Source: Meghimatium bilineatum
Taxonomy: Eukaryota; Mollusca; Gastropoda; Stylommatophora; Philomycidae
Assembly: GCA_034231615.1 (NCBI GenBank)
Contig: CM067298.1
Span: 34,540,127-34,604,126, forward strand
Length of the DNA: 64,000 nucleotides
Direction of reading: 5' to 3'
The notes beneath the pieces are model-generated. The model saw only the letters and a list, made by a program, of their open reading frames with translations. It had not been told where the DNA came from and did not search any database. Position numbers and translations under genes: made by a program. Shown here piece by piece: positions 31,292 through 58,500 of the stretch (positions within the stretch are counted from its first letter, which is position 1; the number at the start of each line of letters is the position of its first letter).

Positions 31292-34200
31292 CTATAAAAG
31301 TAAAAAATATTAAATCAATAAATATATTTTATTTTAATATCACATGTAATATTAATCATTAAAAACAATAGCATTAAAAACACTTAATAACAGCTAACAG
31401 TAGCTATAAAGTGGACAGATAATTTCTGTTCTGCAGATTAAAAATGAGTGCATATTTATCTCCTCATAGGCGCGAATTGCGTATTGGTGGTCGTGTCTCT
31501 CCTCGGTCTGTATGCACCTAGAGTGTCAGGAAGTAGGACTCTATTTTCCAAATCAAAGGCCAGTCTTCTAGCGATTATCCTCTCCAGCACCTTGCTGTAA
31601 ACATTTTATAAGGTGATGATATAACTCTTGATGTTGGAGGTGTCTTTGCCTGGCTTTGCCAGGGGGAGAAGGTAGCGTGTAGACACTCTTCTGGTATGAG
31701 TCCTGTTTTCAGACTTGAGTTTAAATCATCAACAATTGTTTTAAGCCGGTTGTCTGCAATATCTTTCAGGAGGCTGTAACGTATTCTGTCGGGTCTTGTT
31801 GTACCATCTGATGTTTTCTTATTGTTCTCTTTTACATCCTCCAATGAGATCAGTTCCTCACCAGCAACATCGCTTCTTACCAGCGATTCTGTTATTGGCC
31901 ATTGTAGTCTTACATTCATCAATATTGCTCTGATCTGATTACTGGAGATATCTGCTGAAGAAAGCACTCCCCTCTGCGGATAGTATAAGCCCAGACTCGT
32001 TCTTCAAGCACAAGTTGTATTTTGTGTCAGTTATTCTATTCATTGCCTTATGTAATTTCCAAAATTTGTATAGGGCACTGTCAGCTGCAACATCTTATGC
32101 AAAGTTATCCCAGCGTTCTTTCTTGGCTTCCTTTGCAATTTGTTTAAAGGCTTCAGTGGTCTTCTTCATAGTAATCTCTAACTATTTTTTACTTTCCATG
32201 GTGACTTGTGTCTGTTGTCTCTTATGTTACCACTCCCTGATACTTTGCTTCTTCTTTACCCATGCAGACTCTTATCTCTTCAGTCCACCATGGGGGTTGT
32301 ATGTTTGATATATAATATAGTTGATTTTATTGAAAAATACATAGATAATGTTATTGTTATTGACAAACTAGTGCAAGTTATTGCATCCTGTTGATATTTA
32401 GTGTTTTAAATTCAGAAAAGTTAATTCCGTCCAAATGAGAAACATAATTCAGGAGGCAAAGAGTTAATAAGTACATCTGTACTGCTTTTACTTTACATAA
32501 TTAAACATACCTTATAAAATATATTTATGAATGATTTAAAGAGAATAGAAAAAAAAACTACAGGCTATAGTCTAACCTTTCCCTTAGGAGCTTCAGATGT
32601 TGCAGGATACATAAAAATACCTCCATAACAGATTGTACGATGGACATCAGCAACCATGGATCCAATATACCGAGCTCCATATGGTGACTTTCCATCCTAA
32701 TAGAAATCAAAAACTTGATGAGTTCTCATTTCTTGTTTAGCAGTTGAATAAAATATACAAAAAATGCAAGAGTAACTTTATTTGGAGTGTGTGAATAGAT
32801 CTATAAAGTATTTCTTAAACATATCAAATGATGCTGCTTCTGATGCTATTGTTGTTGTCAATATTCAATTGCTGCTGAATTGATCTACTCATAGCAGCCA
32901 AGGGTACCTGTAAAACTTTTTCCTGGCAGTTGAGAGAGAAGGACACTTCATGAAGTGTTTAGTCGCTCAATGTGAACAGTGTCCACACATTGGTTGTTGA
33001 CTGGGGCTGATGTTGTTTAAATGGATATTTATTCTGGCATGTCCTGTTCAAAACTAAATGAAAAATAATTGATTTCTACAGCAGAGTTTATTTATTTTGT
33101 CATTGTCTTTTGATCGAATCAATTCACTATTTACATTTTAACCAGTCTGCCTATTTTATTAGCTTATCTATTCAGTCAGATTTTCCTTGTGTTGTTTCTG
33201 AAAATCTGTTAGCTTGTAATACTGCAACTCCTTTTTTTTCCTTTTTTTTTGAGGCACATTTCTTCATGAGTTTGTGTGCTGCCTCATTTCCTGATATAAC
33301 ATTATGGCCATGGATCCATTGTAGAGTTACACCAATAGGATTCACTGCAAAGCGAATTAAACTGATGAAATGTGTTGTGATGGGGTTCTACACTGCTCTT
33401 CCTAATTGCCTTAAGAATTTATAATGTTTTGCTCTTCCTAAGCAATAGATATCCTGATTTACATATAAGCTCTGCTTTAAGTGCTTTCAAAACAGACATA
33501 GAATCTGCAAATAAAACTATGATTATTTTTGTTCCCTGAGTTGTTGTGTACTATTGGTGTACCAATTCAATGACTCTTGATAGCCTCAGCGACAACTTCA
33601 TAATTTGAACTATTTTTACCACAAAAGTAACATAGGTAGATCCATCAGGGTAAAGAATAGATGCCACATCCTGCAAAACATGTGGTCTTATAAGTCATGC
33701 CATTAATGTAATCATGGATTGCTGATACTGTGTAGTCACTTATGGTCGATAGGGCCAACGTATTCGAGAATGTGGGTAGTGTTCCTAAGTTGGCTGCTAA
33801 ATCTATTTATTTTGCTTGAAAAGTTACTTCTTTTTAGTGTTCATTCTCAAACTCCTGCTGGATCTCTCTTGTAGCAGAACAATGGTTCTACTTGTTTTCC
33901 AGCAGGATATAGTCCAGAGATTAGATATGCATTGTGTTGCTGTTTTATTTGTACCAATGGCTGACACATCAGTCTTCAGCTAAGAAAGTTAGTTGATACA
34001 GTATAAGCTTTCCCAATGAGGCAGTCCATGGTGTTTGTTTTGTAGCTTCTTTTTTGGTAGATGATGTTTATCATTTTCCTCTTTGACTATATCCAAAAAA
34101 AAAGATATTGTCTTTTTTTTCCAAGTATCCATAAGTATTTTGTTTGGGTGTCATTATTTTGTCTCTTATACGTCTCTACAGCTTCCATCAGTGCTCTGTT

Positions 34201-34465: not shown

Positions 34466-37400
34466 TCTGGGTCTTTCTCAGATAACGATGCTACCATATT
34501 TACGAAAAGTAAAACGAAAAAAAAAAGATAAACGGAAGGCCCATTTGTGTTCTTCATTTTTTTAAGGAGCATTTCCCTTGGATATGTTTATCCAGCAATG
34601 GGTGGATCTATATTTTTATATCACAGAATCAATATATCATCACAACTGAGATTTTCGTGAAATGCAGGCACTTCCAGTAAATCCTTCCTCCAGTGTAGTA
34701 GGACAAAGTAATAGGATGTCCTTGTCCATATCTTTGCATCCAGGAGCACTCCTCGCAACTGTAACATGCATACTGCATCTTTATTGGTCAAAGGCAAGTT
34801 CAACAAACTTATGGTAGCCATTTTGTAACTAGGATGGAGCTGGCAGAGGGATATCACAAATATTCGTGAAAGTTGGCCCGTTATCTGGTAAAGAACTTAT
34901 CTCTTTTTACTACTACAATTTTAAAATATGAAGCTTCAAATTATAGAGAGAAAAAAATTAGATGGTGACAGACATGGTTCAAAATCTCCCCATCCACCTG
35001 TTACAGAGTTATTTATTGATTGGTAAATGCATGCAGACACATCTCTCCACCTTCCAAAAATGTAATTTTGACTATTTTAATGTTTTATAATTTCATAGTA
35101 GAATTTGGATACAGTTGATTGAAACACAGGTATAACATAAACAAATTGCACAGAATACACATTCCTCAGCGAACAGAAATACTGAATAATACACAGACTA
35201 TTAGGCATTAATGCTGTTAGTTGACAAACATTATCATCAAGTGCCATGCTGACTGATATGAATCCACAATTATCTATTTCTAGTATCTTGTATTAGGATA
35301 AATGTTGACTATTTATCATGCTACAGTGTTAAACTACCTAATATTTTCTCATAATGCCATCCTTGACTGCTTTGAATCTTTTTCTTTTAATTATGTTCTT
35401 CATACCTTCCTGTCTCATAAACAATCCAAAAAGTAAAAATCATCTCTTTCTTATATTGTTTATGGTACAGTACAAGTAGACACCACCACATGTTTAACCT
35501 TAAGCACACTCACATGAAGTGCGTTCGACAACAGTTTACACTGTATAAGATAGCCGCAGTCTAGTGTATAAGTCCCACAAAGGCCCTGTTGCTAGGTCCT
35601 CTGTAATCAGTAAAAGAAACCACATCTTTAAAATTATGGTTACCAGATTATTTGAAATCTGGCAAGTTATTCAATTGACTTCCTTTTTTCTGCAAGTTTA
35701 GTGGCAACATGGACTGAATGTCATTGAAATTTTTGCAATCTGTTGACAATTTCAAACCAGAGCAGCACCATGAAAGTGAATTGGGTTTTATAGACTTTTG
35801 TTTTATTGTTTTTCAGTAAAATCATTATGGATTATGATTCAGATGATGTCTTCTTGAGAGGTAAGTTGTTTTCACACTTGAAAATACATTAGACCACAAG
35901 GTTTCGAATATTTTGAGGCTGTTTATATATATTAACTGTTTTGGAGAGCTTCAGTTTTGGACTAGATCTAGCTTTCGAGAACAATTTTATGACAACCCCA
36001 TAAGCTTATTCATTTTCCCCAGTGAAATTATGACAATTTGACCATAAATACTGTCGAATTAGGTCTGTATCACACTGTTGCCCTTCCAAGAAATTTCCCC
36101 AAAAAAGTCAGATTTTTCTTTCTTTTTTTTCCTTATTATTTGTTTGTTTTTAATGAAAAAATGTCTTTATGACTTTCTCACAAATTTTGTATCACACACA
36201 CACACACAAAACATACACCAATATATGCAGAATTCTTCTTCTTCAGCATTCATTCTCAAACTCCTGCTGAATCTCCCTTGTAGCAGGACCATGGTTCTAC
36301 TAGATTTCCAGCAGGATGTAGCCCAGAGAATGGAAATGTATTGTGTCACTGTTTTATTTGTGCCAATGGCCCGACACATCCATCTTTGGCAGGATGCAGA
36401 ATTCAATTCTTTATTTATATGTGCAAATATTATTTAAATAGCTCTAACGACAAAAAAGTTATCGCATTTTCACAACAGGCACCCACTATTACACAACATT
36501 TTCAAAAAAGAATCCGGCTACAGTAGAGAAATTACGTAATTGTAAACTAGTGTGCTTAATGTTAATTATTTCCCTTGTCTATGTTTGTAAATTTCATGTT
36601 CATCATTTAATAATTAAAATATTTATTTATTTAGGGTTGGAGTTAGGGTTAGTTATGTAAAACACAACTATACTAACCAAAACCTAAAATAAATGCATAT
36701 TTAAATTATTAAATGATAAACATGAAATTCACAAGCATAGACAAGGGAAATAACTTGACTATGTGGTGGTGTCTACTTGCAATATACCTTATTTACCTTT
36801 ACTACATTAAATGCAATTTATGTAACTTGCCCCAGCGTTTTTCGTAGTACAACCGGAAGTGGGTTTATATTTGTGCAGATGAAATGGAGAAGGTTAAGTA
36901 ATATGAGAAAGAGGCAATGTTTATTTTGATAACCATAAATAATAAATAAACATAAAGATTGTGATCTCAGATGAAACATTGGTAATCATCCACTAATAAG
37001 AGTCAAAACTTCTATGGTCGGGGTCTTTGTTACCTCTAATATTTTATGATAGTGTGTCCTGACATAACCTAATTGGACTTTGTTGTCCGCTGGTAGAATG
37101 GGGCATGATTCTCCAAAAGAGACTCATTAACTACCTACAAATAAGCGTCAACTACCATTATAACTTGGTACGGATCAACGAAACATTTATGTAATAACAG
37201 AAATTTGCTATACACAGCACTAACAATAAAGAATTAATATAATTGAGGATTTTGAAAAGAGTTGTTAGGGAAATAGGAAAATAAGTTGTAAAAGAATGCT
37301 CTTTATAGGAATTGAACTGCATACAGCTTCGATGACTTATTTGTAAATCAGATGATAAGTAAGTTTGATACTGTTCCATTTATCTGATACCAATTTATTT

Positions 37401-40400
37401 TGCAACTTTAGTCAATACACTCAAGTTAAGAGTTAGCAAAAATATCAAAGAAATATTAAATATTATATATACCTTTGGTCTTTTCTTGCTGTTAACATAT
37501 TCTCTTGTTGCATCATCCCAAAACATGTCATAACCTTCATTCAGTGAGTAGATCTTGCCACGAGGTTTGATTCGCATGTTTTTTTCTGTTAACAAGAACT
37601 CTCCAATCGACTGAATGGGATACCAACGATTTTTTACATTTAGAAAATTATTGTTATATGTACAATAAATACTATGGTTTTAAAACTAAATACATACTGT
37701 ACAAAACTAAAGTGTTGTCAATAGCTCTTTTCAGTTCAGCATTTAGACATTAATCCGTCACACATATTCCTTCACACATCTGTACTGAGGTGCACAGGTA
37801 TATGCATTTCACAAGTGCAATCCAAGAATTATATAATCAAGATCCTAAAAGTACCTATTCATGCTGCACCCTGGAAACAGATTTCTGTGAAGTTTGTGAT
37901 TGGCTAACACTTTATGAGTCGTACCTAGGGAGTGCAGACCAAGGTGGAATGAGAACTGTTTGCGCAAGGCAAAGAATCTCTCTGAATAGAACCTCAATCC
38001 CCAGAGCTAAAACACTGTTGCAGCATAATGTAAGACGACAATCCTGTACTGCCGGGTTGTCGTGTGCAAAAGCTCACAAAGGAAAAAACAGTGAGCTAGT
38101 CTGTGGGAATAAAGGCAGATCTATTGAGTAACTGTGAAGGTAGCACAGCGTCATGTGCAAGATTAAGTGAAAAAATTGAAACAATAACAAAAGAAATGTT
38201 CATGCCTGAGAGCAACTTTCAACCATCTTTTGACAGCAGGTTGTGTGGAAAAGTAAAGGCAGGATATCATACAGTCCCACTACAAAGAAAATGTTGGTAG
38301 AAGCTATTACTTGGATGAGATGCTCACAATGTTGGTGAAAAAAACCTCAGCTAAGAAGGAGAACTAACCCTATTCAAACTTTGCTGTTAGAGATTTCCTA
38401 TACTGGAACCAGATTACAGTCAAGATAAGGGTCAGTGTCCAGGAAAACAAAGGGAATGGCATCTAATTATATGAGACAAGTTCATTGGCAATGGAATACA
38501 TACAAGATATAATCAAATGAAGTCTAAATCCCTGCTCAGTGTCTCCCTAAGAAACTTCTACAAAGGGACACAATTTTCCTGCAAAGTCCAATGACACAAT
38601 GGGTGATAAACTGTCACAGTGTAGAGCATATTCTCACTCATTTGCCTGATGACAGAAAGGAAGACTGTCACAGACTATGAAAGCTTGCCTAAAATAAAAG
38701 CATGCCAAAATAAGGTGTGCTGGGTTAGAAGGCGCAAATAATGCAGCACTGCTGTAAACCAGTGCACAACATACTTCAAGCTCCCTGGGAGAAATTACAC
38801 AATTCATGCTTGTTATCAGAGAACGAACATAGTTGAAAATAGATATGTGCTGCATTTTTTTATTGACATCCTCTTCTTCATTTTGTTTAATTTTGCTATT
38901 TGCTATCTCCATAGATTATGTATAATGCACACAAAAAACACTGACCGGATCATACATAAATCCATTGACACCCTGTCCAAGTGACAGAACCACCATTGTA
39001 GCACTGCCATACAGAGCATATCCTGCACACACCATGTTCTTTCCCTGTTGCAGTACATCAGTGACTGAACATGGTCCATCAGATGTCTGCAATTCAAAAG
39101 ATTGTTTAAATAAACAGGATGTATTAAAATCAAAATGTTTAATAAACTCCAAAATCTATATAAAAATTATTATGAAAAGATATTTTGAATGCAGAACATA
39201 AACATGATAAAAATCACAATCTAGAATTATGAAGAGAACTGAAATTACTTTTTAGCTTCATTATGGGTAAATGTGTCCACACATTCCAACTTTTTAATAT
39301 TAGGCTTGGTTTCATACAGCTTCTGAGACGCGGAGATAAAAAGCACACAGAATCCGCTACCAATAATTCAATCTGTGTGCAACACACTGAGAGCCCCCAC
39401 CCCCCAAAAGGGTCTCCCAGGTGAAGGGGAGCCTTCCTGTATGTTGTGCACAGATTCATGGATGCTGCATTGTATGTGCATTTAGCGAATGTTTGTTTCA
39501 TTAAAAAATGTATGGTTTATTTCGTTAAAAATGTGGACACATCTCCCAGTAATGTATCACATTTGACATCATAATTTAAATATAGAGACAAATATTAAGA
39601 CAAAACATCAAACCAGCCAATCTTTAATTTTCACTTACTAGATAAATCATCTTAGTCATATCAATGTAACCCTTACTTTATAGCTGTAAACCTTCTTGCT
39701 ATTTTGGGGGATAAACATGCAACTATCATTGCTACAACCAATATGTGTGCAAAAAAATTATGGTTTAAATTTAGAAGAAGCAAGCATGAAAAATGTGATA
39801 CTTATTGGATTATTCATCATTACATCTCTGCTGATGAAGATATATTATGTATTCTAATTAGAATCTAGTAGAGCCTATAACTTTTTAATCTTCTTCCTCT
39901 TCAGCATTCATTCTCAAACTCCCGCTGGACCTATCTTGTAGCAGGACGTAGTCCAGAGAATGGAAATGTGTTGTGTCGCCATTTTATTTGCACCATAGGC
40001 CCGACACATTCATCTTTGGCGGGGTTTTCAATATGACTCTTAAAGTTTTGGCTTCAGGTCTACACAATATCAAAGAGACCTCTAAACAAAATCATGTGTA
40101 AAGAGCCACATAATAAATATTTTTCATTATTAATTTATTCAAAGACTATAATTTATAACTAAAATATAGTAAATGCATCGACTTTATAAGGTTATTTCTA
40201 TTTTTGTGAGATTTCTGGGCTTTGTGATTCTTTGTAAAGGTTTCCATCTCAAATGGATGACAGGTAGGCCTATGTTGCTGGTGAGACTTTTAGCATTTCG
40301 TTCCTTCTAAAACAAAGCAAATAGCAGAAAACAACCAATTTAGTACATGTTACTAGTGTGTCCTCTATCTTTGAACTTCTACTATGCCTGTGTGGTGTCG

Positions 40401-43400: not shown

Positions 43401-46400
43401 CATGTCCAAACTAAAATAACAAATTTTTGGATAATCTATAATTGGATAACCTAATCCAGTTTGATTGCAAATTGTTGTGTATAAATATTGTAAGTATAAA
43501 TTTCATGCCACAAAAGAATAGGCACTATCCTTGTTTTATACATTACTGACTATTTTTCTTTAATTAAATATTAAAGTTATTATTTAACTCAAATAAAACA
43601 GTCCTATTCTCATTTTCTCCTTTCATTTATGTTTCTTCTTCTTCTGCATTCATTCTCAAACTCCTGCATATTAGTGGAATGTAGCCTGAAGAAAGGAATG
43701 CATGTGCATGGTTTACAGTTTAGCTGTGATATCTCTTCATTTCAGCCTGACATGTCAGACTTCAGCATGGGTTGGGACAGCAAACTCCACCCTAGAACCT
43801 CCTTAGTCACCTCCTATGACATGATAGGCAGATAACAGTGCTGTATTCTTTATTCCCCTCTTGGGTCCCAGAAGCAAACGGGGGTCATTTTTGTTTCCGA
43901 CACTTGCCCATGTGTTGCCTGGAGCCCGAGAGGGAGCAAAGAATAACAACATTTACTTTCCATGCATGTCGTAAGAGATGACTAAGGAGGTTATGGGATG
44001 AAGTTAACTGTCCCATTCCATAAATGGTCAAAGTGACCCAAAGCTATGCTGAAGACAGATGTCAGGACAAAAGGTGCAGATATTACAGCAATAATGTAAA
44101 TCATGACACAATGCATTCCATTATCCAGACTACATCCTGCTAATCTGCAGTCTGAGAATGAAGGCAGAAGAGGAAGTTTAAAACAATATATAATATGTCA
44201 TGTGACGTATTCCTTCCAGAACGTTGTCTTCCCAATGAACTCTCTGAACCTCTCTCTGTCTTGGGCGATGTGGCTTGCATTTTCTAGCGATGTATTCATG
44301 TTATCTTTAATGTTGTCAGTCCATCGTCTTCTTGGTCTGCCCCTTCTCCTCTTTCCAGGTACTCTTCCCTCCATTATTTGTCTTTCTCAACAGTTATGTC
44401 TCTTTATATGACCAAACAGGCGTAGTTTTCTTTTTGTTATTGTGTTTAGTAACCAACACTCTGGAATATTCAGTGTGTTTATAATATCTGAGTTTCTGAT
44501 TTTATCCTTCCATGATATTCTAAGTATCTTTCTGTAGCATTTCAGCTCGAAGGCGTTGATCTTCTTTGCCGCTGTTTTACTTAGAGTCCATGTTTCACAG
44601 CCGTATGTTGCAACCGGAAAAATAAAAGTTCGTAACATTAGCACTTTCGTTTCTATTTTGTTGTTTTTCCATATGTTTTTCAGCCGTGTTATTTTGCAAT
44701 ATGCCATTGCCAATCTCTTCCTTATTTCTGCCATGCAGTCTCCTGCACTGTTGATGTTTGCTCCTAAGTATTCAAACTTATCCACACATTCTATCTCGGT
44801 ATTGTCAATTCTGATTTTTGGTTGTTGTGTTGTTATATCTGTTGACATGATTTTTGTTTTCTGCGTGTTTAAATACAAATTTTGTGCTTCGCTATATTTC
44901 TTTGTGTTCTTGATTAGTTGTTCCAATCCCTTTATATCGTTTGAAAGAAGTACTGTGTCATCTGCGTAGCGTAGTTCCGGGATTAGGAATCCACCTATGT
45001 TTAAAGCGTGGTAGTCAGTGTTGTGTATGTCTTCTCTCACGTTCCTCATTATACCTCATTATATATTATTATAATATAATATATTATAATTTAAATATAT
45101 TTATATGTAACATGCCACAATAATGTGATGTGTATAACAAAATATTGTTCCACAAATAAATTCTGACAATATATTATAAACATTTTGTATCAAATAAGTT
45201 TACAAATACCGCAATTTCATTTTCCTGAACTGAAAGGACCAAGACATTTAAAAATTAGCCATCAAACTGTATCCAGAACCATTACTGAATTTAGCAAAGC
45301 ATACTTTGTACTTGTCCTCTATTTCAATGACATGTTCATTCTCCTCTGACACCAATATACAGCAGGTATATGATGACCTCAACATGTTGATAAACAGATC
45401 ATTTGACAGAACATCCAGTTTCTTGACCGTATCACCAGTAGCATTTGATGAACCTGATATGCCATACCTTCAAAAGAAAAACATTAATGAATTTTCTATA
45501 ACTCATTCAATTTGCTTCAATAGAAATACAGCACATTCACTGGTTAATTATTGCAGAATGCTTTAATTAAAGAATTCAATGGTTTTATGGTTCTTTTTCC
45601 TTCTATATTCACTCTTAAAAAAACAGTATGATTTTCTGTAAATTTTAGTGGGAGAGTGTGAAAATGTTGTGCTGCTAGTTTTACAGCAAAAACTATACTA
45701 TTTGTGTCTTTCAGCCCAGCACATCTGATTTCATCATGATGTAATGTTTGTTTCTGCAGAAGACCAGTTTTCATGACAAAAAAGCTATACACCCATATCA
45801 ACACTGCCTTGCCAGTGTTGCCACTAACAGCTGAAAAATAGGATACTACCTAACAATAAAATATTAAATTTATGCTTTCTGTAATAGAGAATATTTCTCA
45901 ATTTTTACGAAACGTATTTAAATGAAAAAATTGAAAATAAATAATTACCAAAAAACTTCTTTTATACTACTAGGTATCCTGCCACAGATTTTAACAATAA
46001 TTTCTTACATAAAACTTTCTGTCTATTTGAGATCATTTTGTTTGTTTTATAGTGTAGCTCCTTGCAGTCAGATTCTATGTCGCACCTCCTGATGAGTGGG
46101 CAGCCTATAGGGTCTGGAAGCCTATTCTACATATACAATGGACAGCCTCTAGGGTCTAAGAGTCTATTCTATATATACAATCCAGAATCCACATATACAA
46201 TCAAGAGTAGTCTATGTGACAGATTTTACTGATATAGCTATGCTCAGAGTTGACTGTTGAATAGTTGTTCTTTCAGGACACAGAAGATGTTACATATGGT
46301 TAAAATGTTGTCGGTTATGTTGATTGAGCCACTGTTTCCTATACGGATGATTTATTATTGATTTAATTTCATTATCCAAGGTAGGACGTTCTTGTTGAAC

Positions 46401-49400
46401 TTGCTTGCTATTAGATTTTGCAAATCTCTTCAGCTTTTTCTCTACCCAAAATGTCACAGTATGATGGGTTTCACTGGATCAAAACTTTCATTTTTTGTGA
46501 AAGAATGTACAACAAATCTCACAGTGTCTCTTTCTAGTCAATTTTTAGGTGAGCATGACTAGTCTATCAATCTATATGTTGTGGCCCACAATTGCCTTGC
46601 GGCGTAGGGGGTAGAAGAGTTCTCTGGAGATGGCCTTCTTGTGTGTTGTTTGTAAGCTTGTTCCCATGGCCTCTTTTATTTCTGTGATCCATGTTTTACA
46701 TGGTCTGCCTCTGGCTTTATAGCCGTGATGTCTATGTGTCATGGCCATATTTGGCATGCTGCCTGTTGGTAGTCTGGAAGTGTGTGAACACCACTTGATC
46801 TGTTGTCTCTTGGTGTGTTCCAATACTGGTATTATTTTTGTTATCTGTCTGATGTTATTATTTCGAATTCTATCTCTAATGACACTCCGAGTATTCTTCG
46901 TCGTCATTTCTGCTGTCACTAATTTTCTTTTGTCTTGCACTGTCATTGTCCAGGTTAAGCACTGGTAGCACAGTGATGGGATAATAATAGTCTTGTATAA
47001 TGCAACTTTAGTGTCTATGTTTACATTTTTGTTCTTAAAAATATGTGTAATCTGCCGTAGGATCTGGTATGTTTTGTTTCATCTATTTTGTATCACATGG
47101 CTAGTATCACAAATAAAGCAGCGACGTTGTCAATACAACATCCAGGTGAAAATCTAGTAGGGCTAGTGTCCTGCTATAAGAGAAATCCCGCAAGAGTTTG
47201 AGAACAAATAGGAAAAAATAATATATATATATTCTTTATTTCTGATTTATATATATATATATATATATAGGCCTATATATTATATATATATTTAATATAA
47301 ATTAGAAATAAAGAATAGAATAAGGCATGCAGAGACAGCATTCAAACCAATTAAGGACAATATATCTACAAATCATTTATTATAGAAACCAGAGATTTCT
47401 TCTGAGCAATAATTTGTGACACAAAAATGAATCATGGCCAATAAATGAACAGGATCTCCAAAGGTCACAAAATGATGCTTATAAAAAAGATTAACTGCTA
47501 TAGAGATAAGTATTTGATACATGAAGAAGTTCACTATCAATATAATAAAGAAACAATTATAATTTTGTTCTCATGTCATGAGAATAATGATATTTATAAA
47601 ACATTATAAGGAAGAAGATCATGATAAACCCCACAAATATATGATTGCAGCTATTTTCTAGGCAATATTTACATTTAATAGTTTGCCACTGTTTATCTGA
47701 ACTATTCAGCTGACCAGCTTCGTGCAGCTGAGTTTGTTAAAGTTGGATTCTGGGATGCTATAACTCCATGTCACAAAGTGAACACATAGCAACAGACACA
47801 AAAACAATGAGGATGGCAGAAAGAGACAATTCTGGACAGCCTAACTTCAGGGTATGGAAAATGTACAATTGTTTGCATAAGGAATCCTCTTAAAAATTCT
47901 GCATGTGAGACTGACATCTACTGTTCTTCACTAGATATTCTTTGAAAATGTGTTCAATTCATCCTTACTTTATCTCTAGCTGTTCCTCTGTTTAATTATT
48001 ACTAGTTCTCTTCAATTTTGTAAACGTATGTATTTTTTATCATTTTGCTGTCATCTGATAAACAAGTACCTCTTATGGTGTGGTACATTACTATCAACCA
48101 TAGATGTTTGATATTTCTTCTTCTGTGTTAGTTCTCAAGCTCCTGCAGATTAGCAGGATGTAGTCTTGAAAACAGAATGCGTTGTGTCATGGTTTACAGC
48201 AATGCTCTGATATCCGCTCCTTTCGGTCTGACATCCGACTTCAGCATGGCTTTGGGTCACTGACCCTATATGGGATGGGACAGCAAATTTAATCACATAA
48301 CCTCCTTAGTCACCTCTAACGACATGCATGGAAGGTAAACAGTATTGCTATTCTTTTCTCGTGCCTCAGCAACACACAGGTGAGATGTTTTATCAATTAC
48401 TACATATCAGAGCTTTCGACCATTCAAAAATAGTGGAGGTCACAGTTTTGGCTGGCCTAATCTGGTCATGACACCCCCCCCCCCTCCAGTATGTATTTGT
48501 TATTATTTCCTGCTGTAATCTGATACAAAGTGAGCAAAACGTATTCCTATATCTAAATGACCGCATGCGAGAGGTCTGATGGTTATCATCAATGACTCAC
48601 CAGCAGACCAACAACCATGCAACAGCAAATTCCTATATGAACTATATATGCCACTTTATAGTGAGGTTTTCCTTTCCTCTAGTGGAAGTTGCACAATTAA
48701 ACTCATAATTATTGGCGGGAGGTGGGTTCAGAACATGACTCTTAGTACTATGAATTTAGCCAAAGGGCTTGTAAACCCTCCTCCCTAACGATTTTCCAAG
48801 AAAAACACCAGAAAGTTCACGGAAATGTAGGAAATATACTTAAAAATTAACTACCTGGTAAAAAGATTTTTGTCTTCTATTTTTAGGTAAAACCTCAACC
48901 ACCACCTTATTGAAGACATATCCACGACCCTGTGCACAGTAGGCCTACTTAATTTTATACAGTACATCTATACAATAATGTTTTGTCCTCCTCCTAGTAG
49001 GGGTGCACCATCGAAAATGACAGTAGGATGCTTTTTCTCAACTGCACACAACTAAAAGTAGGCGTCCTCTGTATATGAAATAAAACTCATACTTTAGTTA
49101 TAGTGAGATCTTATATTCTGTTGTTAAACTTACTTTCAATATGTTTTATTATGTATCATTAAAGATGTCCTATACATATACAAGTCTACAAGAACCACCA
49201 GGGACGGATTTAGACTTGATAGGGCCCTAAGCTATTTGAGTTATGGGGCCCTTTAACAATTAACTCTTTCCGGACCAATCGCCAGTATACTGGCTTTATA
49301 CTGTGGGTCTACAGGACCAATCGCCAGTATACTGGCTTTGATTTGATCAACGTCTTAGATCGATCATATATTGATCAGTTATATTTCGTTTTGCCCAGTT

Positions 49401-52400
49401 CAAGTTTTTATGTTAACCTCTGAACATCCGGGAAAGATCCTCTTCCGTTTTACAACCGGTACCGAAACACATGTGGTGTGTACAAGAAGATTTGTGATCG
49501 ACATATTCTGTAACTTTTATTTCTGAAAAAAATGGCAACGCCCACTTCTTCTAGATACAGTGCAGAACAAGCTATGGTTATGTTTCAGAGCTTGCTAGTT
49601 AGTGAATCTGATAATGATGATTCCGATAGTGATTATAGGCCTAGTGACTTGTCGAAAGGTAAGAAACCAAAGCAAACTGGTGTAGGTTTTATAAAAAATT
49701 TAACAGCTTGCATCAGATCAAGTAATGTTAGTTCCTCTGAAGAAGCATCTAATAGTAGTGATGAATCTACTGATTCAGAGGATTTAGCTGGTACTTCTAG
49801 GCCTACTAATGCTACAAGTAGGCCTATGAATCATACTTCCACAGATCGACAAGGTAGGCCTAGGACTGATGCTGTGTGGCGTGAAGCCCTAGAAGGAGAG
49901 AGTATAGGAGTGTCTCACTTCAGACAGATACATTCTGGCTGCAAACTTGGCCTTCCTGAAAATGCCTCACCTCTCCAGTGTTTACTATCCTTGATGACAG
50001 AACCAATAATTGACAATCTAATAGCCAATGTAAACTCTTATGCCCAGCAGAAATTGGAAATGAATACACCTCGAAGGAAATATTCTACTTATTCAAAATG
50101 GACTGCGCTCGACCGAAATATTTTTATGAAGTTTCTCGCCACCCTGATAAACATGGGTTTGGACCCCAAACATTCCATAAAAGATTTTTGGTCTACAAAA
50201 ACACACAGAAGTAGCCCCTGGTTTGGATCAATTTTCAGCAGGACCAAATTTTTATTGATTTACCAATCAATGCTTCATGCGGCTGGAGCTGATGCACAGG
50301 GTAAAATTAAAATAGAGCCGTTCATAAATGAATTAGTTGCAAGCTTTCAGAATGCATTCTATCCTTCTGAAAACATATGTATAGATGAGATGGTTATAGG
50401 CCACAAGGGAAGGTTTAGGCACAAGCAATATAATGCAAACAAGCCAAAAAAATATCATATAAAATCATACGGACTCTGCGACTCCATCACCGGATATGTT
50501 TTCAACCTGCTGGTATATTTTGGTGTGGACACGACATACAGGCTGGAAACTGATACAAAGTCTACCCATGCTGTCAAAATTTTTGACAAACTACTAGAAG
50601 GCATCACAGGACATCACCATTTGTTTGCTGACAGGTATTATTCGTCCTTACCTCTTGTCCAGTTTCTGCGGCAGAGAAATCACCATTATACTGGAACTCT
50701 CAATGCGAACAGACGAGGGTTTCCACAAGAAATGAAGAATAAGAAAATAGCTGTCAATCAACCAAAATGGTTCATAAATGATGAAGATAAAGTTATGTGT
50801 GTCAGCTGGAGAGATAAAAAATCGAAGAAACCTTGCCAACTGGTAACAACATGTGGAAGCGCAACATGTGAAATTAGAATTGAGGGTAGGAGCGAAGTCT
50901 GGAAACCATCACCCATTCATAATTACAATATGTCAATGAATGGATGTGATAGAGTAGATCAGATGATTTCATATTATGGAAACCACACAAGAAAAACAGT
51001 AAAGTGGTGGAAAAAAGTATTTATGTGGGTGTTGGAAATAACACAACTCAACGCCCACATTTTATACACACTTAGCCGCCCTTGCGCAGAGAAGCCTATG
51101 CCCCTTTCAAACTTCAAGGACATATTGATAGAGGAGCTATGTAGTTTATTTGAATTAGAGGCACCTAATAACATTGATGCTGCTTTATTGTCCAAGCCAG
51201 GAAGAAAAACAGTAAATACAGAGCTTGAAAGGTATCAGGGAACCACCCATCTCATTGACTCCGGTGGAAAAGACAGGCAATGTGCTCATTGTGCTACTAA
51301 GCAAATACGAAAGCGCAGTAGCTACTACTGCATAGGATGTTCACATAAGCCACATCTGTGTGCTAAATCATGCTTTAGGGAATATCACACAAGATGATCT
51401 CATTTGTAACAAATAAAAACTTGTAAATAATAAAGCCGTGACTGGATGTAAATATTTTCATATTTTTATTGCTTCTGATGTCATTCAGAAAAATGTACAT
51501 AACTTTAACATTTATTGATATTTATTCATCAACTAAACTGCATAATGAAGAAAAATGGATATATTTGTGTAAATATTCTTGAAAAATGGATATCAACAAT
51601 GATAATCATGGACAAGTATGGATACATTTGGGTAAGTCACAATATTTATACTAATAAATTAACATTTTCATTTTATTTTTGTGTGTTTTACTAACTCTAA
51701 CCTTGTGAAGTAATCAAATATCATCAATGTACTTATATATTCATATTCTGTATCCATTCCCCTTTCCAATGATATATTACACATACACTATTTATCAATA
51801 TTAGTATGTCAAGTGATACAATGAAGAACACATGTAAGGAAATTTTTCTACCCCTAAATATTTTCATATTTTTATTGCTTCTGGTGTCATTCAGAAAAAT
51901 TAACATAACTTTAACATTTATTGATAGAAATTCATCAAATAAAATGCATAATTAAGAGAATTGAATATACTTGTGTAAACATTCTTGACAAATGGATATA
52001 ATCAATGATAAGTATGGATACATTTGGGTAAGTCACAATATTTATACTAATAAATTAATATTTTCATTTTATTTTTGTGTGTTTTACTAACTCTAACCTT
52101 GTGAAGTAATCAAATATCATCAATGTACTTATATATTCATATTCTGTATCCATTCCCCTTTCCAATGATATATTACACATATACTATTTATCAATATTAG
52201 TATGTCAAGTGATACAATGAAGAACACATGTAAGGAAATTTTTCTACCCCTGAAATATTTTCATATTTTTATTGCTTCTGGTGTCATTCAGAAAAATTAA
52301 CATAACTTTAACATTTATTGATAGAAATTCATCAAATAAAATGCATAATTAAGAGAATTGAATATACTTGTGTAAACATTCTTGACAAATGGATATAATC

Positions 52401-53760
52401 AATGATAAGTATGGACACATTTGGGTAAGTCACAATATTTATACTAATAAATTTACATTTTCATTTTCTTTTTTTGTGTTTTAATAACTCTAATCTTGTG
52501 AAGTAATCAAATATCATCAATGTACTTATATATTCATATTCTGTATCCATTCCCCTTTCCAATGATATATTACACATACACTATTTATCAATATTAGTAT
52601 GTCAAGGGATACAATGAAGAACACATGTAAGGAAATTTTTCTACACTTAAAATTTACTCTGGTCCAAACCTAAAAATACTCAGGTCCTGAAAGAGTTAAG
52701 AATATATAGATAGTGAAATTAAAAAAATTTGGGGGAACCAAGAAAGTGGGGGCCCTAAGATATAGTTTGTTTAGCTTATAGGAAAATCCTATACTGAGAA
52801 CCACTGCTTTCAATAGTGAAAGAACGAAAACTTGCATGGTTTTGACATGTAGGCCTATGCAGACATGATTCCTTGTCAAAAACAATACTGCAGGGAACCA
52901 TCAAGTATTGAAGAGCAGAGTGGGAAATGAAAAAATGAACAGAGAAAATCTTGACTGAACAAGGCAAACAATATGTTTCCCCGCTCATCCTCATCGTTTA
53001 TGATATAGTCTAAATCACTTGAGAACTGTGCTGAAGAATCCTCAATGTGGTGCCTCTATGACCCTGACGGGTTACGGGATATTAGAATATGACCATTAAA
53101 ATCTGGAAGTAAATCAATTAAATCTACTTGTACTAATTCTATTCAATTTGGGTGCAATGAGCATGCACAGCTTGCGTGGGTTATGGCAAATAAGACTGAT
53201 AGTGGTAGTGACTTAGTGACTCGTCGTCATCGGTGCGTGACATTGGTTATTACAATAACTTGTTAAAATTGAAATAAGAGATTAAAACCACTTTTTGTGA
53301 GGAGGGTGAGTGGGAAATGATACTTTCAACCACGAACGAGAGTCTACCTTTGTTTTATCAATGCGTATGAACATTTAAGTCATTACACAATGTGAACGAC
53401 CGAAGCTTCATCTCTTACACAAAATAAACAATGACTTAACAATAACAGACTTGGCTAGAACACGCTGCTTAGTACTAGGTTATGCCTACTAGTACTATGC
53501 TAATCCTAATTTTCAATACTTGATATTATATTATTATGAAAAACAAAGAAAAGCGACAACTTTTTCTCCATTTATTCAGATACTTACAGATGATGAATTC
53601 CTGCTTTTCGCACTGCAGATGATATGGCTTTTATTGCCGTAAGGATTGCATTCAACAGCTGAGTGAGGTCACCTGTAGCAGCTGGGTACTTTCGCTGTTC
53701 TTCCAAGACAAACCTTGTCAAAGTTATGCAATCTGTGTCTAGTGCTTGCTCGCCAGACAT
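31103..53760 (-). CDS. FBP1: Fructose-1,6-bisphosphatase (complete, 7 coding exons)
   Basis: Hydrolyses fructose 1,6-bisphosphate to fructose 6-phosphate in the cytosol, the committed step of gluconeogenesis; vertebrate orthologues are homotetramers inhibited by AMP. Exons: 53760-53588, 45467-45305, 41040-40948, 39086-38946, 37610-37473, 32696-32577 and 31291-31103. All junctions are GT-AG and phases match, giving 338 residues, the length of human FBP1. Visible landmarks: [20 protein letters not shown] (about 33-52), [10 protein letters not shown] (73-82), VSEE with metal-binding Glu99/Glu100, the signature [11 protein letters not shown] (119-129; Asp120 and Asp123), [16 protein letters not shown] (about 241-256), and [10 protein letters not shown] (277-286). 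No key residue is missing, so it should be functional. Introns are large (about 1.3-8.1 kb) and packed with transposons, including piggyBac in intron 1. The gene symbol follows vertebrate naming. No promoter motif could be identified. Confidence 0.97.
31440..32310 (-). mobile_element. LINE fragment in FBPase intron 6 (broken)
   Basis: The minus strand reads [14 protein letters not shown] near 32300, then [35 protein letters not shown] and [20 protein letters not shown] (31850-31670). This is the connector and N-terminal finger of a LINE reverse transcriptase. Part is open for 130 codons; the rest has stops. Confidence 0.75.
32577..32696 (-). CDS. FBP1: FBPase coding exon 6
   Basis: The acceptor TTTCTATTAG| and donor AAG|GTTAGA bound 40 codons, including [20 protein letters not shown]. 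Confidence 0.97.
32960..34370 (-). mobile_element. LINE with RNase H in FBPase intron 5 (broken)
   Basis: The minus strand: [18 protein letters not shown] and [17 protein letters not shown] near 34350-34230 (the same family as GLRIMMGAMKST at 23740). RNase H blocks follow: [17 protein letters not shown] near 33520-33460 and [19 protein letters not shown] near 33320-33260. A family B SINE copy sits inside it at 33836-33990. Confidence 0.7.
33836..33990 (-). repeat. SINE-like family B copy
   Basis: GTTCATTCTCAAACTCCTGC, TAGCAGAACAATGGTTC, TTTCCAGCAGGATATAG and GTACCAATGGCTGACACATC match the family, inside the intron 5 LINE. Confidence 0.85.
34371..34460. repeat. TA microsatellite
   Basis: Nearly pure TA run of about 90 bp with two AATAT interruptions, in FBPase intron 5. 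Confidence 0.95.
34461..36229. other. FBPase intron 5 interior, no exon seen
   Basis: Contains a minus-strand open frame at 34857-34621 with no recognised motif, the dispersed repeat copy at 35325-35425 (partner 13640-13745), and at 35467-35495 a short match (AGTACAAGTAGACACCACCA) to the MITE terminus also seen at 36760 and 63745. Confidence 0.45.
36235..36400 (-). repeat. SINE-like family B copy, well preserved
   Basis: TTCTTCTTCAGCATTCATTC, AACTCCTGCTGAATCTCCC, TTGTAGCAGGACCATGG, TTTCCAGCAGGATGTAGCCC and CCCGACACATCCATCTTTGG: a good reference for family B. Confidence 0.88.
36560..36785. mobile_element. Fold-back MITE with TTAGGG-like centre
   Basis: The left arm (TTTCCCTTGTCTATGTTTGT through ATAATTAAAATATTTATT) is the reverse complement of the right arm (AAATTATTAAATGATAAAC through ACAAGCATAGACAAGGG). 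The arms of about 75 bp surround a centre with TTAGGGTTGGAGTTAGGG. The right terminus ends GTGGTGTCTACTTG. A second copy is at 63743-63925. Confidence 0.8.
36786..37472. other. FBPase intron 5, upstream part, no exon seen
   Basis: AT-rich intron with no recognised repeat. Confidence 0.4.
37473..37610 (-). CDS. FBP1: FBPase coding exon 5
   Basis: The acceptor CCCATTCAG| and donor AAG|GTATAT bound 46 codons, including [20 protein letters not shown]. Confidence 0.97.
37611..38945. other. FBPase intron 4
   Basis: Open frames at 37790-38300 on the plus strand have no recognised motif and do not fit the bisphosphatase. A degraded family A SINE lies at 38680-38835. Confidence 0.5.
38680..38835 (+). 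repeat. Degraded SINE-like family A copy, 3' half
   Basis: AAGCATGCCAAAATAAGG, GGCGCAAATAATGCAGCAC, TGCTGTAAACCAGTGCACA and a diverged tail ending AGAGAACGAAC. Confidence 0.55.
38946..39086 (-). CDS. FBP1: FBPase coding exon 4
   Basis: The acceptor TTTTGAATTGCAG| and donor CCG|GTCAGT bound 47 codons, including [20 protein letters not shown]. Confidence 0.97.
39893..40022 (-). repeat. SINE-like family B copy with internal deletion
   Basis: TTCAGCATTCATTCTCAAAC and CTATCTTGTAGCAGGACG, then directly TAGTCCAGAGAATGGAAATG. The segment with the TAGATTTCCAGCAGG block is missing relative to the copy at 36235. Confidence 0.8.
40390..40645 (+). repeat. SINE-like family A copy in FBPase intron 3
   Basis: GTAGTTCAAAGGGGAGCAAAG, GTCATAAGAGTCAACTAAGG, CATGCTGAAGTTGGATGAGT and a tail reading CAGGAGTTCAAGAATGAAC. 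Confidence 0.8.
40948..41040 (-). CDS. FBP1: FBPase coding exon 3 (active-site signature)
   Basis: The acceptor TTTTTACAG| and donor AAA|GTAAGA bound exactly 31 codons: [20 protein letters not shown] and onward to FGIYRK. Confidence 0.98.
41357..41640 (-). repeat. SINE-like family A copy, well preserved
   Basis: TTCTTCTTCTTCTGCGTTCG, ACTCCTGCAGATTAGCAGG, ATATCTGCGCCTTTCGGCCT, CTTTGGGTCACTGACCC and TTCGGGCCCCAGCAACACAC. Close to the copy at 17440 in reverse; lies in FBPase intron 2. Confidence 0.9.
41641..42734. other. FBPase intron 2 interior, no exon seen
   Basis: A 131-codon plus-strand frame (42133-42528) has no recognised motif. No repeat family identified. Confidence 0.4.
42735..43260 (+). 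mobile_element. LINE 3' end, zinc-finger type
   Basis: A 108-codon open frame reads [60 protein letters not shown] and [19 protein letters not shown]. After a stop the frame continues with [18 protein letters not shown] (43152-43205), the C-terminal C2H2-like finger of this LINE type. It is closely related to the fragment at 7480-8570 and 5'-truncated. Confidence 0.85.
43261..43629. other. FBPase intron 2, no exon seen
   Basis: AT-rich sequence 3' of the LINE. No further features. Confidence 0.4.
43630..43885 (-). repeat. SINE-like family A copy (left half of an inverted pair)
   Basis: TTCTTCTTCTTCTGCATTC, AAACTCCTGCATATTAGTGG, CTTCAGCATGGGTTGGGACA and CCCCTCTTGGGTCCCAGAAG. Faces the copy at 43910 head to head. 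Confidence 0.8.
43910..44172 (+). repeat. SINE-like family A copy (right half of an inverted pair)
   Basis: GTGTTGCCTGGAGCCCGAG, GTCGTAAGAGATGACTAAGG, GCTATGCTGAAGACAGATG and a tail TCTGAGAATGAAGGCAGAAG. Confidence 0.85.
44198..45049 (-). mobile_element. LINE reverse transcriptase C-terminal half, one stop
   Basis: The best-preserved LINE coding segment here. It reads [19 protein letters not shown] (catalytic YADD at about 44972-44961), [63 protein letters not shown] and [11 protein letters not shown]. One in-frame TGA at 44389-44387 interrupts it; the frame then continues with [20 protein letters not shown] to its natural stop at 44200-44198. 5'-truncated in an AT-rich tract. It resembles 18850-19620. 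Sits in FBPase intron 2, same strand as the gene. Confidence 0.88.
45305..45467 (-). CDS. FBP1: FBPase coding exon 2
   Basis: The acceptor TTTTGAAG| supplies one base to complete Leu58; the donor is AAA|GTATGC. Encodes [20 protein letters not shown] through [16 protein letters not shown]. Confidence 0.97.
46065..46215. repeat. Short imperfect tandem repeat
   Basis: CAGCCTATAGGGTCTGGAAG / CTATTCTACATATACAATGG and CAGCCTCTAGGGTCTAAGAG / CTATTCTATATATACAATCC repeat with a period near 44 bp, plus a partial third unit. Confidence 0.65.
46565..47085 (-). mobile_element. LINE RT C-terminus (broken)
   Basis: Minus strand: [20 protein letters not shown], then [20 protein letters not shown], a 124-codon open frame with [16 protein letters not shown] and [20 protein letters not shown], ending [12 protein letters not shown]. 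Same family as 24910-25690 on the other strand. Lies in FBPase intron 1. Confidence 0.8.
47130..47212 (+). repeat. SINE-like family B fragment (3' end)
   Basis: GAAAATCTAGTAGGGCTAG, TGTCCTGCTATAAGAGAAAT and CCGCAAGAGTTTGAGAAC match the 3' end of family B in sense orientation. Confidence 0.7.
47220..47295. repeat. TA microsatellite and short palindrome
   Basis: Interrupted TA runs, with flanks TTCTTTATTTCTGATTTA / TAAATTAGAAATAAAGAA forming an inverted repeat from about 47230 to 47315, so this may be a small fold-back element. Confidence 0.6.
47320..48114. other. FBPase intron 1 sequence, no exon seen
   Basis: AT-rich; no recognised coding or repeat signal. Confidence 0.4.
48115..48385 (-). 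repeat. SINE-like family A copy
   Basis: TTCTTCTTCTGTGTTAGTTC, CTCCTGCAGATTAGCAGG, CTTCAGCATGGCTTTGGGTC and GCCTCAGCAACACACAGGTG. Confidence 0.88.
48470..48960. repeat. C-tract-associated dispersed repeat (family F)
   Basis: GAACATGACTCTTAGTACTA then TGAATTTAGCCAAAGGGC (48730-48770) matches GAACATGACTTTTAGTGCTA then TGAATTTAGCCACAAGG at 54353-54386 and GGAATTTAGCCAAAAG at 14878. All are near long C runs; here the C run is at 48474-48487. Confidence 0.55.
49194..49259. mobile_element. Left remnant of an older hAT-like repeat (probable)
   Basis: CAGGGACGGATTTAGACTTG followed by GGGCCCTAAG looks like the end of a hAT-type repeat, cut by the piggyBac insertion. The possible other end is at 52700-52808. 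Confidence 0.35.
49264..49276 (+). repeat. piggyBac left terminal inverted repeat
   Basis: CTCTTTCCGGACC directly after TTAA; pairs with 52683-52695. Confidence 0.9.
49272..49339. promoter_or_regulatory. piggyBac subterminal repeated palindrome (probable transposase site)
   Basis: A 26 bp segment occurs twice, at 49272-49297 and 49314-49339, 42 bp apart. Each holds the perfect palindrome GCCAGTATACTGGC (49281-49294 and 49323-49336) preceded by GGACCAATC. The first copy overlaps the terminal inverted repeat. At the right end only GGTCC recurs (52661 and 52683), without the palindrome. A binding role is inferred from position. Confidence 0.7.
49532..51397 (+). CDS. piggyBac transposase, intact, 621 aa
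   Basis: Cuts and pastes the element at TTAA by hairpin chemistry in the nucleus (family knowledge). The start ATG at 49532 has AAAAAAATGG context. Residues 20-95 are an acidic, Ser-rich tail ([12 protein letters not shown]). The DDE_Tnp_1_7 domain runs from about 140 to 510. Likely catalytic residues are Asp285 ([14 protein letters not shown]), Asp367 ([10 protein letters not shown]) and Asp473 with Asp476 (GCDRVDQM), matching D268, D346, D447 and D450 of the moth enzyme. At 584-619 a Cys/His-rich finger (C584, C587, C600, C603, H608, C610, C614, H619) matches the DNA-end-binding domain. No stop or frameshift occurs. A poly(A) signal AATAAA follows at 51412. Antisense to the host gene. Probably functional, judged by sequence only. 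Confidence 0.96.
   Translation: MATPTSSRYSAEQAMVMFQSLLVSESDNDDSDSDYRPSDLSKGKKPKQTGVGFIKNLTACIRSSNVSSSEEASNSSDESTDSEDLAGTSRPTNATSRPMNHTSTDRQGRPRTDAVWREALEGESIGVSHFRQIHSGCKLGLPENASPLQCLLSLMTEPIIDNLIANVNSYAQQKLEMNTPRRKYSTYSKWTALDRNIFMKFLATLINMGLDPKHSIKDFWSTKTHRSSPWFGSIFSRTKFLLIYQSMLHAAGADAQGKIKIEPFINELVASFQNAFYPSENICIDEMVIGHKGRFRHKQYNANKPKKYHIKSYGLCDSITGYVFNLLVYFGVDTTYRLETDTKSTHAVKIFDKLLEGITGHHHLFADRYYSSLPLVQFLRQRNHHYTGTLNANRRGFPQEMKNKKIAVNQPKWFINDEDKVMCVSWRDKKSKKPCQLVTTCGSATCEIRIEGRSEVWKPSPIHNYNMSMNGCDRVDQMISYYGNHTRKTVKWWKKVFMWVLEITQLNAHILYTLSRPCAEKPMPLSNFKDILIEELCSLFELEAPNNIDAALLSKPGRKTVNTELERYQGTTHLIDSGGKDRQCAHCATKQIRKRSSYYCIGCSHKPHLCAKSCFREYHTR
51412..51417 (+). terminator. Transposase poly(A) signal
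   Basis: AATAAA 15 bp after the TGA stop; a second AATAAA occurs near 51429. Confidence 0.6.
51451..52650. repeat. Three tandem copies of a 400 bp unit inside piggyBac
   Basis: Copies begin AATATTTTCATATTTTTATT at 51451, 51857 and 52254 (periods 406 and 397 bp) and end near AAGGAAATTTTTCTAC. Copies 2 and 3 are nearly identical; copy 1 differs by small indels. Non-coding, between the transposase gene and the right end. Confidence 0.93.
52683..52695 (-). repeat. piggyBac right terminal inverted repeat
   Basis: GGTCCTGAAAGAG followed by TTAA; pairs with 49264-49276. Confidence 0.9.
52700..52808. mobile_element. Right remnant of an older hAT-like repeat (probable)
   Basis: GGGGGCCCTAAG echoes GGGCCCTAAG on the left of piggyBac, and ACTGAGAACCACTG reads in reverse CAGTGGTTCTCAGT, a hAT-type end. 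The two outer ends differ, so the pairing is uncertain. Confidence 0.35.
52809..53587. other. FBPase intron 1, 5' part, no further exon seen
   Basis: AT-rich intron with no recognised repeat or motif; the open frames are unsupported. Confidence 0.4.
53588..53760 (-). CDS. FBP1: FBPase coding exon 1
   Basis: Starts ATG TCT GGC GAG and ends CAT CT|GTAAGT, phase 2; encodes residues 1-57 plus two bases. It contains the N-terminal region that forms the AMP site in vertebrate enzymes ([17 protein letters not shown]). Confidence 0.97.
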
Positions 53761-54329: not shown

Positions 54330-54610
54330 CCCCACCTACCCCAACAAATCGGAACATGACTTTTAGTGCTATGAATTTAGCCACAAGGTTCGTAAAAAAA
54401 AATAGAAAACACCAACACCCCCCCCCCTTGCCATCCCTAGCAAGTTTCCATATTAAAGAAACGAAAAGAAGTAGAAGAAGTAGATACACCCGAAAACTCA
54501 GGAATCACATTTTTTATGTAACACCCCTCCTGGAGAAGAACATAGGTCTATCTACGGCCCTGCCACTTCGGCTTACGGCAAAAGCAGAGAAAAACAATAG
54601 ATAGAGAGAT
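54330..54610. repeat. Dispersed repeat family F copy
   Basis: GGAACATGACTTTTAGTGCT then ATGAATTTAGCCACAAGG, followed by a C run at 54418-54428, colinear with the copy at 48730. Confidence 0.5.
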
Positions 54611-57714: not shown

Positions 57715-58500
57715 GTATCTACTGGATTGTCTATCTACAAACCATGATGCAATGACATACTCAAACCCTCATATACTTAATTGTCTATAAACCATGTTGT
57801 GTAAAACATGTTGTAATGACATATTAAAGCATTATTTACTAGATTGTCTATAAACCATGTTGTATAAATGTGTAAACAATGTTGTATAAATGTGTAAACC
57901 ATGTTGTATAAATGTGTAAATCATGTTGTATAAATGTGTAAACCATGTTGTATAAATGTGTAAACAATGTTGTATAAATGTGTAAACCATGTTGTATAAA
58001 TGTGTAAACCATGTTGTATAAATGTGTAAACCATGTTGTATAAATGTGTAAACAATGTTGTATAAATGTGTAAACAATGTTGTATAAATGTGTAAACCAT
58101 GTTGTATAAATGTGTAAACCATGTTGTATAAATGTGTAAATCATGTTGTATAAATATTTAAACCATGTTGTATAAATGTTTAAACCATGTTGTATAAATG
58201 TGTAAACCATGTTGTATAAATGTGTAAACCATGTTGTATAAACTATGTTGCAATGACATACCCAAGCCCTTATCTACTGGATTGTCTATAAACCATGTTC
58301 TATAAATGTGTAAACCATGTTGTATAAATATGTAAACCATATTGTAAAAACTATGTCTTAATGACATACTAAAACTCTTATCTACTGTATTGTCTATAAA
58401 CCATGTTGTATAAATGTGTAAACCATGTTGTAATGACATACTAAAACGCTTATCAATTGGATTCTATAAACCATGTAATGACATACTCAAAAGACTAGTC
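57715..58500. repeat. 22 bp minisatellite within a larger duplicated unit
   Basis: The core 57853-58246 is about 18 copies of ATGTTGTATAAATGTGTAAA plus CC, with CCATG/CAATG variants. It is flanked on both sides by units reading TCTACTGGATTGTCTATAAA, then ATGACATACTCAAA and CCCT, seen near 57715, 57780, 58270, 58380 and 58450. So the array grew inside an older unit of 80-120 bp. Confidence 0.93.

What the first reader, a model, noticed from the sequence alone, without database searches (positions are those of the whole stretch)
49260..52699. Intact, possibly young piggyBac element in a bisphosphatase intron
The 621-codon transposase is uninterrupted, the three catalytic Asp positions and the C-terminal Cys/His finger are all present, TTAA duplications are exact, and the terminal repeats differ by one base. 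Almost every other element in the window is broken, so this one stands out as potentially recent or still mobile.
Basis: partly seen in the sequence, partly recalled or inferred. Interest (0 to 1): 0.7.

Follow-up and report, generated by a model that had tools for sequence, protein, structure and literature searches.

The report
Young, intact piggyBac transposon family
The window holds one complete copy of a jumping gene of the piggyBac type that has very recently multiplied in this animal's genome and probably can still move; this is a good new example of a well-known kind of element rather than a new kind.

Summary
Confirmed. Window 49260-52699 is a complete 3,440-bp piggyBac element: TTAA at both ends, an open 621-codon DDD transposase, a C-terminal zinc finger and 13-bp inverted repeats with one mismatch. 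It lies antisense in the 8,120-bp first intron of a fructose-1,6-bisphosphatase gene.

The own assembly (1.61 Gb) decided it. Of 76 listed protein matches, 32 are full-length frames without a stop (99-100% identity). I read the window copy and the 20 next-ranked in full: all 21 frames are open, the left 40 bp are identical in all 21, TTAA stands on both sides in 20, and flanks differ. Mean difference is 0.184% over 2,189 bp, nearly star-like. The repeat mismatch is shared by the family, so it is not decay. "Young" is shown for the family; "still mobile" is likely but not shown, for want of RNA or a second individual.

Two further features: the left end has two identical 26-bp modules 42 bp apart, spaced much like piggyBat's transposase sites, with no palindrome on the right end; and a 3' tandem array varies from 1 to 5 units between near-identical copies, with hybrid units that indicate unequal exchange. 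New member of a known kind.

The parts
49260..52699 (+). complete piggyBac element, both TTAA included
   Evidence: 20 other complete copies read from the same assembly
49260..49263 (.). left TTAA target site
49264..49276 (+). left terminal inverted repeat, 13 bp
   Evidence: left 40 bp identical in 21 of 21 copies
49272..49297 (+). left-end module 1: GGACC motif (LE bp 9-13) and 14-bp perfect palindrome (LE bp 18-31)
   Evidence: predicted transposase site by analogy with piggyBat and piggyBac
49314..49339 (+). left-end module 2, identical to module 1, 42 bp inward
49532..51397 (+). transposase ORF, 621 aa; DDD = D285, D367, D473; C-terminal zinc finger from about aa 573
51412..51434 (+). two AATAAA polyadenylation-like signals just after the stop
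51449..52655 (+). 3' tandem array, three units of about 397-407 bp; 1 to 5 units in other copies
52683..52695 (-). right terminal inverted repeat, 13 bp; GGACC at RE bp 9-13 and again at 31-35, no palindrome
52696..52699 (.). right TTAA target site
45468..53587 (-). intron 1 of the host fructose-1,6-bisphosphatase gene, which holds the element antisense

Best explanation
This is a full-length, autonomous piggyBac DNA transposon, one of several dozen near-identical copies from a very recent burst. Shown: structure, copy number, independent insertions (for the 21 copies read) and near-identity. Inferred from the solved piggyBac and piggyBat complexes: the 621-aa transposase binds the left end as dimers, with the core on the GGACC motif and the paired C-terminal zinc fingers on each palindrome. 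It pairs this end with the palindrome-free right end, cuts at TTAA, and joins the element to another TTAA without leaving a scar. The two-module left end suggests a piggyBat-like assembly of two dimers on an asymmetric end pair. Copies multiply by cut-and-paste with repair from a sister or homologue, or by transposition during replication. The changing number of 3' array units, with hybrid units, fits unequal exchange or template switching, perhaps during such repair.
For: Pfam DDE_Tnp_1_7 E = 2.9e-67. Best solved relatives are piggyBat 9c0f, E = 3.1e-43, and piggyBac 6x67, E = 5.4e-24. Of the 76 matches listed from the own assembly, 32 are full-length open frames without a stop (99-100% identity) and 45 are at 98% or more (my count of the rows). 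21 complete copies: frame open in 21 of 21, left 40 bp identical in 21 of 21, right 40 bp in 19 of 21, TTAA on both sides in 20 of 21. Mean pairwise difference 4.02 in 2,189 bp, largest 8, six of 210 pairs identical; 33 singletons and three shared sites, so nearly star-like. The 300-bp flanks show only local repeat similarity between copies, no shared insertion site among the 21. Left-end motif and palindrome at bp 9-31 and 51-73, against piggyBat motifs at bp 11-16, 55-60 and 99-104 with a palindrome three bp after each and none on the right end. Array of 1, 2, 3 or 5 units in 1, 9, 10 and 1 of the 21 copies, with first/last-type hybrid units.
Against: No excision, insertion polymorphism or transcript was observed. 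The 20 comparison copies are rows 2-21 by protein score, which favours young copies and few replacement changes. CpG observed/expected in the CDS (0.40) is below the window mean (0.54); 79 of 118 window stretches are at or above it, so it gives no sign of youth. Other near-identical copies are already broken: seven of the 39 full-length matches at 96-100% have a stop, and of the three copies found only by their left end, L043 is interrupted by a LINE and L044 and L045 stop at codons 317 and 364, by frameshift as I read it. L040 has CTAG in place of the right TTAA.
Confidence: 0.9

Rival explanations
1. The family burst very recently but is now silent or suppressed, for example by piRNA or by lost expression, so the intact frames are only too young to have decayed.
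For: No activity data exist here. With 0.07% private change per copy intact frames are expected even without further activity: the ORF clock gives about 0.8-3.6 disabling events per 1% divergence, by the indel rate assumed.
Against: Pairs of copies without any difference (six of 210) and a shared variant that splits the copies 9 to 12, hence at least two source copies, place activity very near the present.
Confidence: 0.3
2. A single old copy kept open by host use (a domesticated transposase).
For: The frame is open and the coding singletons show fewer replacements than neutral (14 of 27, 20.3 expected, P = 0.0075), though the choice of copies by protein score biases this.
Against: There are dozens of near-identical copies; the 21 read in full have intact ends, 20 of them with TTAA on both sides.
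Confidence: 0.01
3. The copies arose mainly by duplication of host DNA (segmental or satellite) rather than by transposition.
For: Two of the 32 intact matches, on C22 and 4.7 kb apart, share flanks at 99.0% over 4.6 kb inside a satellite-like repeat, so that pair is a duplication.
Against: The 21 copies read in full have different flanks, and 20 of 21 have TTAA on both sides.
Confidence: 0.02

Closest known systems
piggyBat (Myotis lucifugus; 9c0f)
   Same: DDD core and cross-brace type finger; repeated short motif plus palindrome on the left end at nearly the same distances; no palindrome on the right end
   Different: 30% protein identity; different motif letters; two perfect identical modules instead of three imperfect ones; a 3' tandem array of 1-5 units
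piggyBac (Trichoplusia ni; 6x67/6x68)
   Same: TTAA target, equivalents of D268/D346/D447, palindrome at bp 17-33 of the left end against 18-31 here
   Different: piggyBac has the palindromic internal repeat on both ends; lower protein score
intact piggyBac families of beetles and of small animal genomes (PMC12732532, PMC10813416)
   Same: intact copies with TTAA, single ORF, transposases mostly of 500-725 aa, divergence near zero in the beetles (abstract of the first; part 1 of section 3 of the second)
   Different: the host here is an unnamed animal; those families were not compared sequence by sequence

Membership tests
piggyBac superfamily | DDE_Tnp_1_7 transposase domain | tested here: met
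   E = 2.9e-67, 227.9 bits against a cut-off of 22.4
piggyBac superfamily | catalytic DDD triad | tested here: met
   D285, D367, D473 aligned to D268, D346, D447
piggyBac superfamily | TTAA target-site duplication | tested here: met
   20 of 21 copies read in full
piggyBac superfamily | short terminal inverted repeats | tested here: met
   12 of 13 bp outside TTAA
piggyBac superfamily | one of the usual tip motifs (CCCTT, CACTA, CCCTC, CCCAT in PMC10813416) | tested here: inconclusive
   the tip is CTCTT, one base from CCCTT
piggyBac superfamily | C-terminal cysteine-rich domain | tested here: met
   zf-Tnp_2, just above its cut-off; C584, C587, C600, C603, H608, C614, H619 shared with piggyBat
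piggyBac superfamily | seamless excision and TTAA integration in an assay | not testable with these tools
   needs an experiment
piggyBat-like end architecture | repeated motif+palindrome modules on the left end only | tested here: met
   two modules at the left end; no other match to the palindrome within two mismatches in the window
piggyBat-like end architecture | binding of the palindrome by the zinc-finger dimer | not testable with these tools
   inferred from passages of papers only
currently active element | insertion polymorphism or transcripts | not testable with these tools
   one assembly, no reads

The most novel reading that the evidence does not exclude
The family is moving now, and its burst followed a rebuilding of its left end. 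The three older relatives read at 7-9% divergence share a different tip (CTCATTG) and have imperfect, unequal palindromes. The young copies have two identical perfect ones, in the two-module number that was best in piggyBat. If so, a change in transposase-site architecture, not in the enzyme alone, released the family, and the 3' array records rounds of copying by unequal exchange.
Probability: 0.2. Interest if true: 0.7.

Novelty: new member of a known kind. Interest (0 to 1): 0.45.

Why it matters
A natural family with dozens of near-identical copies, 32 of them listed with an open frame, is a live case of a transposon burst and a candidate gene-transfer tool. Its simple left end, two identical perfect palindromic modules, lets the asymmetric two-dimer assembly described for piggyBat be tested in a distant relative. 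The array shows that repeat number can change faster than point mutations accumulate during a burst.

Tried and rejected
Relatives outside the own genome: none confirmed in viral contigs or genome contigs, and no exact 19-base piece of the left-end module in either. By their descriptions these collections hold viral, bacterial and archaeal DNA, so this says nothing about other animals. A search of the paper library for four tip and palindrome strings gave two papers on unrelated subjects (listing only); two wider piggyBac searches and one with cockroach and locust gave listings from which five papers were opened. Structure prediction without relatives failed (mean pLDDT 34.3), so no fold search was run. 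Rfam and tRNA scans of the window found nothing. The 3' array was considered as a clock (3.0-6.8% between the window's units) and rejected: its units differ far more than the copies do and they recombine. No other piggyBac end pair was found in the window; TTAACTCTTT near 32458-32468 (minus strand) has no partner of that pattern on the other strand. The three left-end hits without a listed protein match (C23, C12, C7) were thought to be short non-autonomous copies; two are about full length (3,043 and 3,035 bp) with a broken frame, and one is interrupted by a LINE. Values not used because the script set them wrongly: the open-frame values of the C22 pair (L041), and the array count of 0 for L038 (one search finds one unit).

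Full report
Observation. The sequence at 49260-52699 is as described: TTAA on both sides, a 13-bp terminal inverted repeat with one mismatch, and an open 621-codon frame at 49532-51397. Order-1 random sequences of the window's length reach at most 254 codons in 100 trials. The host gene is fructose-1,6-bisphosphatase on the minus strand. Five coding pieces were found by motif and a sixth by eye among the open frames. Pfam confirms five of the six above its cut-off; the sixth (37398-37679) matches below it (16.9 bits, cut-off 27). Exon 1 ends at 53588 before GTAAGT and exon 2 begins at 45467, so the element sits antisense in intron 1. No other open frame in the window exceeds 240 codons, and of ten other frames scanned four match part of a reverse transcriptase, which fits the remark that the other elements are broken.

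What it is. Pfam gives DDE_Tnp_1_7 (E = 2.9e-67) and zf-Tnp_2. The nearest solved proteins are piggyBat (E = 3.1e-43) and piggyBac (E = 5.4e-24). The catalytic Asp residues are D285, D367 and D473. Seven Cys/His positions of the finger are shared with piggyBat; H573 is a candidate for the eighth (position; the role is inference). The first 110 residues hold eight S/T-x-x-D/E motifs (4.7 on average in shuffles, 113 of 2,000 shuffles reach eight), a weak excess. Removal of such N-terminal sites raises activity of piggyBac and piggyBat (passages of PMC11707139).

Is it young? The assembly that holds the window has 1.61 Gb in 32 contigs. The protein search scored 71 of 3,359 first candidates and listed 76 matches; five of the 76 are second pieces of a copy already listed. 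By my count of its rows, 39 matches run over all 621 residues at 96-100% identity; 32 of these have no stop (all at 99-100%) and seven have one or two. 45 of 76 rows are at 98% or more; the other 31 lie at 76-97%, and 25 of them contain stops. Counts are lower bounds: the left-end and right-end searches each scored 40 candidates, all hits at 99-100%, and the left-end search brought in three copies that the protein list lacks. I read the window copy and rows 2-21 in full. All 21 frames are open; the left 40 bp are identical in 21 of 21; the right 40 bp in 19 of 21; TTAA stands on both sides in 20 of 21, the exception being L040, whose right end reads CTAG. In the 2,189 bp before the array the mean pairwise difference is 4.02 bases (0.184%), the largest is 8, and six of 210 pairs are identical. 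There are 33 singletons and three shared sites, one of which splits the copies 9 to 12. The window copy has three private changes. Private change per copy is 0.072%. Because these copies were picked by protein score, the low divergence and the shortage of replacement changes (14 of 27 coding singletons, 20.3 expected, P = 0.0075) are both biased towards what was found. Flanks of 300 bp showed only local repeat similarity, so these insertions are separate. Two of the 32 intact matches, on C22, share flanks and are a later duplication in a satellite-like repeat. The independent ORF clock allows at most about 0.8-3.7% neutral divergence, depending on the indel rate assumed, and agrees. Low CpG in the CDS gives no support for youth.

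An older layer. I read parts of six of the lower-ranked copies. L047 and L049 differ from the window copy by 2.0% and 1.8% in the coding part; L047 has both modules (one mismatch in the second palindrome), L049 one module only, as if 42 bp were lost by exchange between the modules. L048 differs by 1.4% with three gaps and lacks the tip. L050, L051 and L052 differ by 6.7%, 9.3% and 6.7% and carry stops. Their tips share CTCATTG in place of CTCTTTC, and their palindromes are imperfect and unlike each other. The family has thus been in this genome for some time, or came in more than once; these data do not decide. Between the window and L052 the changes by codon position are 36, 26 and 60, which suggests selection on the transposase while the lineages were active; the other old copies show this less (36, 33, 45 and 50, 40, 56).

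How it works. In piggyBac the core grips the tip region and a zinc-finger dimer binds a palindrome at bp 17-33 of the left end (passages of PMC7351741). In piggyBat a short motif at bp 11-16, 55-60 and 99-104 is followed three bp later by an imperfect palindrome, and the right end has none (passages of PMC11707139). Deleting the third pair raised activity about six-fold, and keeping only the first pair lowered it. A preprint describes two dimers that join unlike ends (passages of PMC13405395). Here GGACC stands at bp 9-13 and 51-55, the 14-bp perfect palindrome at bp 18-31 and 60-73, and the right end has GGACC at bp 9-13 and 31-35 without a palindrome. In 100 shuffles of the window the palindrome, two mismatches allowed, never reached two matches. 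A similar layout with unrelated motif letters makes a piggyBat-like, asymmetric two-dimer assembly the likeliest mechanism. This step is inference.

The 3' array. The 21 copies have one (1), two (9), three (10) or five (1) units of about 400 bp. Sorting the units by shared variants shows hybrids. The middle unit of three-unit arrays begins like the last unit and ends like a first unit, with different break points in the two lineages. The single unit of L038 begins mostly like the first and ends like the last, as the reciprocal product would. This is what unequal exchange or template switching leaves, and by this reading three-unit arrays arose at least twice. Two- and three-unit arrays occur on both sides of the 9-to-12 split. 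The array therefore changes faster than point mutations accumulate and cannot date the insertion.

What remains open. Presence or absence in other individuals and transcription could not be tested. No search reached other animals' genomes, so horizontal transfer was not tested.

Verdict. Recent, intact piggyBac families are reported in many beetles (abstract of PMC12732532) and in other animals (part 1 of section 3 of PMC10813416), so this is a new member of a known kind.

Noticed in passing
L043 (G000:C23:41900100-41903700), minus strand: A LINE-type retrotransposon with a long open frame (at least 764 codons, endonuclease and reverse transcriptase; cut by the end of the stretch) interrupts another young copy of this element at its base 1101, so that LINE is also recent.
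   Followed up: partly
L041 and L046 (G000:C22:67532000-67543000): Two one-unit-length copies with near-identical flanks lie 4.7 kb apart in a satellite-like repeat; they differ by 6 of 2,647 bases and look like a tandem duplication after insertion.
   Followed up: partly
L049 coordinates 471-700: An older copy lacks 42 bp at the left end and so one module, as expected from exchange between the two 26-bp direct repeats.
   Followed up: partly
window 49190-49259 and 52700-52790: By eye, GGGCCCTAAG-like stretches on both sides suggest that the element lies within another repeat; no other copy of these stretches was found in the window, and the genome was not searched for it.
   Followed up: partly
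window 48728-48775: A 48-bp piece of the left flank recurs at 54349-54396 (85%) and in part at 14855-14891 (84%).
   Followed up: no
window 6468-7216 and 57835-58463: Long repetitive stretches that give repetitive open frames in several frames.
   Followed up: no
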